The notes beneath the pieces are model-generated. The model saw only the letters and a list, made by a program, of their open reading frames with translations. It was not told where the DNA came from and did no database searches. Both the position numbers and the translations under genes were made by a program. Positions 21,304 to 34,279 of a stretch of 35,180 nucleotides of DNA are shown here, in pieces. The stretch is taken from the NCBI GenBank assembly GCA_015222495.1, contig JADFVK010000027.1, positions 1 to 35,180 of the forward strand. The letters are read 5' to 3'. Every line of letters starts with the position of its first letter. The first letter of the stretch is position 1. Origin of the DNA: Pseudomonadota bacterium (GTDB lineage: Bacteria > Pseudomonadota > Gammaproteobacteria > GRL18).

Positions 21304-21420
21304 TCATCCATTTATACAAAACTGATCTATTTTCTAGGTTGAAGAACAAGAGTAATCTGACTAAACCAATAAATTTCTGAACAATCGGTACAATTAACAT
21401 GATGGTACGGTTATCTCTTG

Positions 21421-21510
21421 AGTAACAAAAAATTAGCACAAATAATTTAAAGCTATTTTTATATTACTTAAAATCATTCGTGCCAATTTTTTTGGCTGTG
21501 GGCACTCCTA
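21421..21510 (-). repeat. 90-bp structured repeat, copy 1 (divergent stem)
   Basis: agtaacaaaa...ATTACT...TTGGCTGtgggcactccta; stem AAAAAATTAGCACAAAT / ATTCGTGCCAATTTTTT. Directly abuts copy 2. Strand given is the inferred RNA strand. Confidence 0.8.
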
Positions 21511-21600
21511 AGTAACAAAAATTTATCCACCATCATTTTATAGAAATATAACGTTACTATAAATGATGGTGGCTAAATTTATGTTGGCTGAAGGCTCTTG
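21511..21600 (-). repeat. 90-bp structured repeat, copy 2
   Basis: agtaacaaaaatttatccaccatcattttatag...gttactataaatgatggtggctaaatttatgttggctgaaggctcttg; near-identical to copy 3 and same length. Confidence 0.92.
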
Positions 21601-21605
21601 AGAGA

Positions 21606-27770: not shown

Positions 27771-27810
27771 ATCCATGCTCCTGTCAAAAAAACTTTTTAT
27801 GAACTCTCTA

Positions 27811-27900
27811 AGTAACAAAATTTATCCACCATCATTTTGTAGAAATTTAATGTTACTACAAATGATGGTGGCCAAATTAATGTTTGGCTGAAGGCTCTTG
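27811..27900 (-). repeat. 90-bp structured repeat, copy 3
   Basis: agtaacaaaatttatccaccatcattttgtag...gttactacaaatgatggtggccaaattaatgtttggctgaaggctcttg; same length and orientation as copies 1 and 2. Confidence 0.92.
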
Positions 27901-28062
27901 TATTCTAGTCTAGTATGTTTACTATAGATTTCAAATAAAAATATTATTACAAGAATTTAATGTTTCTGTCATACACTGGCCATGCATGGCTAAGATTACT
28001 TGAAAAAAAATATTTAAACCCTATCTTTTTACTATGTTATTTTAAGACAATAGGATTTAAGT

Positions 28063-33256: not shown

Positions 33257-34240
33257 ATGGAAAAAATTATTAAAAATAAGTTACTTCTGGTTGATGATGA
33301 ACCAATTAATATCCGGCAAATAGGAAGTTTACTTGAGTCTGATTATGATATTATTGTGGCGACAAATGGCCAACAGGCAATAAATTTGGCTAATTCAGAA
33401 CCTCAGCCAGCTCTTATTTTACTGGACATTGTCATGCCGATGATGGATGGCTATGAAGTTTGTCAGCAGCTCAAAAATAATTCTAAAACTATTCATATTC
33501 CAGTGATTTTTCTTACTTCAAACCATAAAGAAGAAGATGAAGCTAAAGGTTTGGAATTAGGTGCTGTTGACTATATTATAAAACCATTTCGTCCCTTGGT
33601 TGATTTCAAGCGTATTAAAACACATATCATATTGCATAATGAAAAAAGGCATCTATTGGAGCAGTTTGCTGATACACTTCCATTTGCCACTTTTGTTGTG
33701 GATGAGAAATTTCAGATAAAATCATATAACTCATTATCAAAAAAATTGCTGGATGATCCGCAAAGCAATTTCACTTTGAGAAACAATAAGCTGCTTTATA
33801 CTGAACAGACCTCTTTGCTTGCAGATCTTATTAAGAATATTCAAAGTAGTGACAAAGACTCATTAACTAATAATATTAAAATTATAAAAAGTCCTACACA
33901 AAACTATCGTATTTTTATCACACCTTTAAGTTATGAAAAAAATATCCAGGATGATTTACCCAATAATACCGAAAACCAATATATTATTCATATTAATAAA
34001 TATAAAGATGTACTTCAAATAGAATCACAATTAAAAGAAATATATGATTTAACCAGTGCAGAAGCACGTTTAGCAAATAGCATCATAAATGGACTGACAC
34101 TAGAAGAAATTGCAGAACAGGGTGATTTGAAATATAGTACACTGAAAAGCTATCTAAAAATAATTTTTCAAAAAACCGGAACAAAAAAACAACATGAATT
34201 GGTTTCAACAATTTTAAGAAACTTTACATGTACTTTATAA
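33257..34240 (+). CDS. Response regulator, REC - PAS-like - LuxR-type HTH
   Basis: LLLVDDEPINIRQIGSLLES, LILLDIVMPMMDGYEVC (D57), IIKPF; PAS-like middle segment FATFVVDEKFQIKSYNSLSKKLL; C-terminal LTSAEARLANSIINGLTLEEIAEQGDLKYSTLKSYLKIIFQKTGTKKQHELV. Confidence 0.88.
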   Translation: MEKIIKNKLLLVDDEPINIRQIGSLLESDYDIIVATNGQQAINLANSEPQPALILLDIVMPMMDGYEVCQQLKNNSKTIHIPVIFLTSNHKEEDEAKGLELGAVDYIIKPFRPLVDFKRIKTHIILHNEKRHLLEQFADTLPFATFVVDEKFQIKSYNSLSKKLLDDPQSNFTLRNNKLLYTEQTSLLADLIKNIQSSDKDSLTNNIKIIKSPTQNYRIFITPLSYEKNIQDDLPNNTENQYIIHINKYKDVLQIESQLKEIYDLTSAEARLANSIINGLTLEEIAEQGDLKYSTLKSYLKIIFQKTGTKKQHELVSTILRNFTCTL

Positions 34241-34279
34241 AACAATTTAGATTCATTTTTTATTATTCAGAACTTTAAT

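What the first reader, a model, noticed from the sequence alone, without database searches (positions are those of the whole stretch)
21421..21600. Tandem pair of exactly 90-bp elements with conserved ends but different stem sequences
Units 21421-21510 and 21511-21600 are both 90 bp and begin AGTAACAAAA. Each carries (A/G)TTACT at internal positions 43-48 and ends with TTGGCTG...GGC.CTC. Between these anchors the sequences differ strongly. Even so, each unit folds into a long stem centred at about position 39-40: AAAAAATTAGCACAAAT/ATTCGTGCCAATTTTTT in unit 1, and AAATTTATCCACCATCATTTTATAG/CTATAAATGATGGTGGCTAAATTT in unit 2. Conserved ends, fixed length and a replaced but still self-complementary stem suggest selection on structure. 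The pattern matches no REP, BIME, attC or CRISPR repeat that I recognise, so the family may be undescribed.
Basis: partly seen in the sequence, partly recalled or inferred. Interest (0 to 1): 0.78.

Follow-up and report, generated by a model that had tools for sequence, protein, structure and literature searches.

The report
Interlocking mobile hairpin repeats
The two 90-base units are copies of an apparently undescribed family of short, hairpin-forming mobile DNA, present in up to about 130 copies per genome in a group of marine bacteria that includes a clam symbiont; it comes in two types whose ends fit each other, so copies line up head to tail.

Summary
Window 21421-21510 and 21511-21600 are two adjacent ~90-bp hairpin units; a third lies at 27811-27900. 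A covariance model finds about 55-58 copies in the incomplete source genome, about 130 in a complete congener (symbiont of the clam Taylorina), and copies in 16 of 24 genomes of the bacterial family. None were found in 33 other families of the class, in phages, plasmids, viral contigs or Rfam.

The stem is kept by compensatory change: 15 of 25 pairs change on both sides; 0 of 500 shuffles reach that. Orthologous sites in congeners lack the units, so they are insertions. Two types exist: type 1 left halves follow CTCTTG (60/63), type 2 follow CTTCTA (35/38; p=4e-20). The right-hand junction mostly carries the next unit's left end. All 24 adjacent pairs are head to tail; there is no gene-strand bias.

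Best explanation: a non-autonomous mobile palindrome, probably moved as folded single-stranded DNA by an HUH/Y1-type transposase cutting at CT, as in REP systems. It is not a REP by membership (no GTAG foot, 90 nt, no REP transposase beside it, no inverted arrangement). Family and mobility are well supported; the enzyme and exact ends (within about 4-6 nt) are inferred.

The parts
21421..21510 (+).
   Evidence: Sequence; model matches 21415-21510; type and borders
21511..21600 (+).
   Evidence: Sequence; model match 21505-21602, 102 bits; fold z=-6.6
27811..27900 (+). Third copy in the window, a single type 2 unit, between a glutamate-synthase-like gene and a DUF4202 gene
   Evidence: 91% identical to unit 2; model match 27805-27902, 92 bits; fold z=-5.7
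21415..21420 (+). Left border CTCTTG of unit 1 (type 1 border)
   Evidence: Same hexamer class before 60 of 63 type 1 left halves
21505..21510 (+). Junction CTCCTA between units 1 and 2 (type 2 border, variant of CTTCTA)
   Evidence: CTTCTA-like hexamer before 35 of 38 type 2 left halves
21595..21600 (+). Right border CTCTTG of unit 2, followed by non-repeat DNA
   Evidence: Commonest right border of type 2 units next to genome DNA is CT followed by CTTG or CTTA
21463..21468 (+). Conserved loop motif ATTACT of unit 1 (GTTACT at 21553-21558 in unit 2), complementary or nearly so to the 5' foot AGTAAC
   Evidence: Sequence; conserved in the 34-copy alignment; not supported as a covarying pair

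Best explanation
A family of non-autonomous mobile palindromes. Shown: hundreds of ~90-bp units in one bacterial family, inserted between genes, with a long stem kept by compensatory change, in two types with different stems and different border sequences, arrayed only head to tail. Inferred: each unit moves as one strand folded into a hairpin. A trans-acting HUH (Y1, IS200/REP-like) transposase cuts at a CT on each side and joins the strand into another CT site. A type 1 unit (CT|CTTG-AGTAAC...GGGCACT|) prefers sites like CTTCTA, which is how a type 2 unit begins. A type 2 unit (CT|TCTA-AGTAAC...GGCT|) prefers sites like CTCTTG, which is how a type 1 unit begins. Each type therefore offers landing sites for the other at its own left end, giving alternating head-to-tail arrays. 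Deletion between neighbouring units through the shared loop then gives the observed hybrids.
For: Copy number and dispersal. Absence at orthologous sites in congeners, clearest at truA: empty TGAACTTTTAATGATGCG in G006 (L138), filled in the source genome (L013). Stem covariation specific to the true register. Type-specific left borders and junctions that follow the downstream unit. 24 of 24 neighbouring pairs head to tail, no gene-strand bias. CT at both borders of most units, as for TnpA_REP, which cuts at C|T 5' or 3' of a folded hairpin (PMC8266576). Intact Y1/HUH genes in G006, G005, G009 and others. Hybrids explained by deletion through the loop.
Against: No Y1 gene of the genus has a unit within about 1.5 kb, and the only Y1 gene found in the source genome has a degenerate HUH motif, though that genome is 76% complete. 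Presence of intact Y1 genes does not track copy number: G013 and G001 have them but no units; G012 has units but only the degenerate type. Exact ends are not settled: reconstructed pre-insertion sites do not separate the two boundary readings, and the empty site L160 slightly favours the other one. No excision intermediate was seen.
Confidence: 0.6

Rival explanations
1. A MITE of an ordinary DDE insertion sequence: a short inverted-repeat element moved as double-stranded DNA with a target-site duplication, whose parent IS was not found.
For: Short, non-coding, nearly palindromic, high copy, intergenic.
Against: Left and right borders of a copy differ systematically instead of repeating each other (CTCTTG left, CTTCTA-like right for type 1 and the reverse for type 2). 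The feet are asymmetric: about 15 unpaired nt on the 3' side. Of 44 left ends in G006, 30 loci were read and none starts a long autonomous element.
Confidence: 0.2
2. A structured RNA or transcription terminator that serves the neighbouring genes, copied along with them.
For: Strong covarying hairpin, sometimes with a T run; always between genes.
Against: Scattered at unrelated loci and absent at orthologous ones. No strand bias: 21 same strand, 19 opposite, 13 divergent, 5 convergent. No Rfam family.
Confidence: 0.07
3. A recombination site moved by a tyrosine integrase or by IS110: an integron attC-like array or a bridge-RNA element with a CT core.
For: Head-to-tail arrays of imperfect hairpins recall attC arrays (own knowledge); CT at both borders recalls the IS621 core (PMC11208160).
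Against: No genes lie between adjacent units, and copies are scattered. The IS110 model PF02371 is absent from G000, G005, G006 and G009. The foot RNTAAC and loop GTTACT do not fit the attC consensus RYYYAAC/GTTRRRY as I recall it. Integron integrase was not searched.
Confidence: 0.05
4. Same family, other boundary: the unit is AGTAAC...CTTCTA (type 1) or AGTAAC...CTCTTG (type 2), inserted 3' of a fixed target hexamer in the manner of IS200/IS605, with the right end part of the element.
For: Left hexamers are nearly invariant. The near-identical empty site L160 keeps CTTCTG and differs by one base from the site reconstructed this way, if the unit is taken to end in GACTGTT.
Against: The last four bases on the right vary with what follows and match flanking DNA of congeners at L075 and L011. 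Overall pre-insertion scores are nearly equal (2830 against 2854).
Confidence: 0.3

Closest known systems
REP / BIME / REPIN elements with RAYT (TnpA_REP) transposases
   Same: High-copy intergenic palindromes, non-coding; hairpin kept by selection; CT flanking the hairpin; probably moved in trans as single-stranded DNA
   Different: Foot is RNTAAC, not GTAG/GTGG; about 90 nt rather than 20-65; neighbours always head to tail rather than mostly head-head or tail-tail; no unit beside any Y1 gene
IS200/IS605 family ends and derived MITEs
   Same: Hairpin close to the ends, flanking short target motif, no target-site duplication seen
   Different: One long hairpin spans the whole unit; no IS200-type element in the genus carries the unit; IS200 ends do not match the model
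Prokaryotic MITEs of DDE insertion sequences
   Same: Short, non-coding, inverted-repeat, mobile
   Different: No target-site duplication seen; two types with reciprocal borders
Atypical hairpins of TnpA_Y1 subclass 2.6 / class 3 and TIRtrons (PMC6006769, PMC3733652)
   Same: High-copy hairpins that lack a GTAG foot, linked to Y1 enzymes
   Different: Those were defined by hairpins flanking the Y1 gene; here no such linkage was found

Membership tests
REP / RAYT system | GTAG or GTGG tetranucleotide 5' of the hairpin foot | tested here: not met
   Foot is RNTAAC (AGTAAC, AATAAC, ACTAAC) in the 34-copy alignment; definition from PMC6006769
REP / RAYT system | Size about 20-65 nt | tested here: not met
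   Units are about 88-98 bp, some about 130
REP / RAYT system | Copies beside the cognate tnpA_REP gene | tested here: not met
   No model match in 30 Y1 loci, up to 1.5 kb each side
REP / RAYT system | Cleavage at CT 5' and 3' of the hairpin | tested here: inconclusive
   CT at nearly all left and right borders, but cleavage itself cannot be tested here
REP / RAYT system | Dimers mainly in inverted orientation (BIME, REPIN) | tested here: not met
   24 of 24 neighbouring units head to tail
IS200/IS605-derived MITE | Ends shared with an IS200/IS605 element of the genome | tested here: not met
   No unit in the fetched IS200-type loci of G004, G006, G007, G009 and G011
DDE MITE | Target-site duplication | tested here: inconclusive
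   Left and right borders differ, but most empty sites are too diverged to read base by base
IS110 (bridge RNA) element | IS110 recombinase in carrier genomes | tested here: not met
   PF02371 absent from G000, G005, G006, G009
Integron attC | RYYYAAC/GTTRRRY ends and gene cassettes between sites | tested here: not met
   Foot and loop motifs differ; no genes between adjacent units. Consensus from own knowledge; integrase not searched
Any Rfam family | Match above the gathering score | tested here: not met
   No match; relaxed hits far below cut-offs

The most novel reading that the evidence does not exclude
Two mutually dependent mobile hairpins: each type's left border is the other type's preferred landing site, so the pair grows alternating head-to-tail arrays and spreads as a cooperating system, with target choice written in the element itself and the enzyme supplied by an unlinked single-strand transposase.
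Probability: 0.3. Interest if true: 0.6.

Novelty: new variant of a known kind. Interest (0 to 1): 0.42.

Why it matters
How small palindromic repeats spread in bacteria is only partly understood, and most studied cases use GTAG-type REPs. A high-copy family with another foot, a larger size, two types with reciprocal borders and strict head-to-tail arrays gives a natural test of whether target choice is encoded in the repeat. It also shows an apparently recent expansion in one lineage that includes an animal symbiont, and it probably explains why several contigs of the source assembly break at these repeats.

Tried and rejected
ftsK-cbpM synteny across the genus as an empty-site test: downstream order is not conserved, so useless. 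IS110 as the mover: recombinase absent. Host terminator: no strand bias and few convergent gene pairs. Local hairpins beside three Y1 genes (one each in G006, G009 and G005): none resemble the unit. Reconstruction of pre-insertion sites to fix the boundary: scores of competing models nearly equal. Foot-loop pairing AGTAAC/GTTACT: complementary in most copies and changed together in the G009 copies (AATAAC/GTTATT), but AATAAC copies in other genomes keep GTTACT, so not supported as a covarying pair. Weak model hit at 34174-34273 looks like chance. Autonomous long element: 44 left ends found in G006, 30 of those loci read; almost all start an ordinary-length unit (some are hybrids or lack a normal right foot), L257 and L260 also show remnants, L263 starts a long-loop unit, and none starts a transposon.

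Full report
Observation. The two units are present at the stated coordinates and share the stated anchors. Unit 2 and the third copy at 27811-27900 fold far better than shuffles; unit 1 does so only on the minus strand. The gathering-score Rfam search is empty, and relaxed matches are far below their cut-offs.

Extent. The window is contig C99 of a 2.28-Mb, 76%-complete genome with 39 BLAST matches to the pair. Several contigs of that assembly begin or end inside a unit. A covariance model from 20 copies finds 58 copies there, 133 in G006, 40 in G005, 23 in G009 and 15 in G007, and fewer or none in the rest of the genus. At a stricter cut-off, 16 of 24 genomes of the family and 3 of 4 genera have it. 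A DNA search of 33 further families of the class, one genome each, found none; it is less sensitive than the model. G006 and G009 can be named from matching contig lengths: G006 is the gammaproteobacterial symbiont of Taylorina sp. (JAHXIV01), and G009 is isolate S010_5 (WFNB01). A study of lucinid clams reports four Thiohalomonadales symbiont species of family SZUA-152, one of them from T. solomonensis (PMC9938160); that G006 is this symbiont is my inference. The window's own genome is in the same genus by the tools' placement.

Structure. On 34 diverse copies and 25 pairs, 79.5% of cells pair against 69.8% in shuffles. 15 pairs have a change on both sides (0 of 500 shuffles), and the covariation score is 0.190 against 0.066. 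Sliding the partner by 1-3 columns destroys the signal. Part of this contrast lies between the two types, and within the first 20 copies most of it did, but divergent members of type 2 (for example L112, L114, L116) also carry matched changes. Relatedness of the copies means the shuffle counts are not exact probabilities.

Types and borders. Of left halves, 60 of 63 type 1 follow CTCTTG-like and 35 of 38 type 2 follow CTTCTA-like hexamers (p=4e-20). Types were assigned by similarity to consensus arms and a few are uncertain; copies are related, so the p-value overstates independence. After a type 1 unit the border is TCTA or CCTA when a type 2 unit follows (15 of 17), CTTG in 3 of 4 cases when a clear type 1 unit follows, and a loose YNYA-like tetramer when genome follows. 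After a type 2 unit it is CTTG before type 1 (3 of 3) and CCTA before type 2 (2 of 2). The simplest reading is that the four bases before AGTAAC belong to the downstream unit and that the insertion point is the CT before them. Read this way units 1 and 2 of the window are 21417-21506 and 21507-21596, again 90 bp each. A competing reading, that the unit is AGTAAC...CTTCTA placed after a fixed target CTCTTG, is not excluded: reconstructed pre-insertion sites score nearly the same. The G005 empty site L160 fits the competing reading slightly better, whereas the right flanks at L075 and L011 fit the preferred one.

Mobility. Orthologous intergenic sites in congeners lack the unit at many loci. The clearest is truA, where the empty site reads TGAACTTTTAATGATGCG. 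Most other sites are too diverged to be read base by base. All 24 pairs of neighbouring units are head to tail. Hybrids with a type 1 left half and a type 2 right half, and the reverse, are explained by deletion between adjacent units through the shared loop ATGTTAC.

Mechanism. Units show no bias to the strand of neighbouring genes (21 same, 19 opposite, 13 divergent, 5 convergent), which argues against a terminator or mRNA role. Asymmetric feet, a maintained hairpin, and CT at both borders recall the REP transposases, which cut folded single strands at C|T on either side of the hairpin (PMC8266576). Y1 genes exist in the genus, with intact HUH motifs in G006, G005, G009 and others, but none is flanked by these units. 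The one found in the source genome has a degenerate HUH motif. The link to a Y1 enzyme is therefore inference. IS110 was not found in the four richest carriers.

Comparison. By membership this is not a REP: the foot, size, orientation and gene association fail. It may work like one. It was not found in phages, plasmids or viral contigs at the sensitivities used. The held literature gave no paper describing it, but that library is partial and ISfinder was not available, so 'undescribed' is provisional.

Verdict. A real, mobile, structured repeat family with an unusual two-type organisation; mechanism plausible but unproven.

Noticed in passing
L263 (G006:C4:174173), L113 (G012:C97:46773-46911), G006:C48:18780, G006:C49:15381: Long forms of about 130 bp with a second hairpin (AGGTAGAGTT...ACTCTACC) in the apical loop, seen on both type 1 and type 2 backgrounds; origin unknown (sequence read for L263 and L113, length only for the other two).
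   Followed up: partly
L028, L084, L099, L240, L246: Hybrid units with halves of different types; the left border follows the left half. Fits deletion between adjacent units through the shared loop.
   Followed up: yes
Source genome contigs C147, C155, C157, C158, C207, C211, C291: Contigs begin inside a unit, so the repeat family probably fragments this assembly.
   Followed up: no
L013, L024, L104: Units end 0-4 bases before the likely ATG start codon of the next gene; effect on expression unknown.
   Followed up: no
L032:1429-2271 (G000:C8): Y1 transposase-like gene whose HUH motif is replaced by DSYQ; a related long Y1 class occurs in most congeners, so it may be a domesticated protein.
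   Followed up: partly
G005:C76 and G005:C333 (L160, L177): Two 93%-identical stretches in one assembly, one with and one without a unit: strain mixture or duplication.
   Followed up: partly
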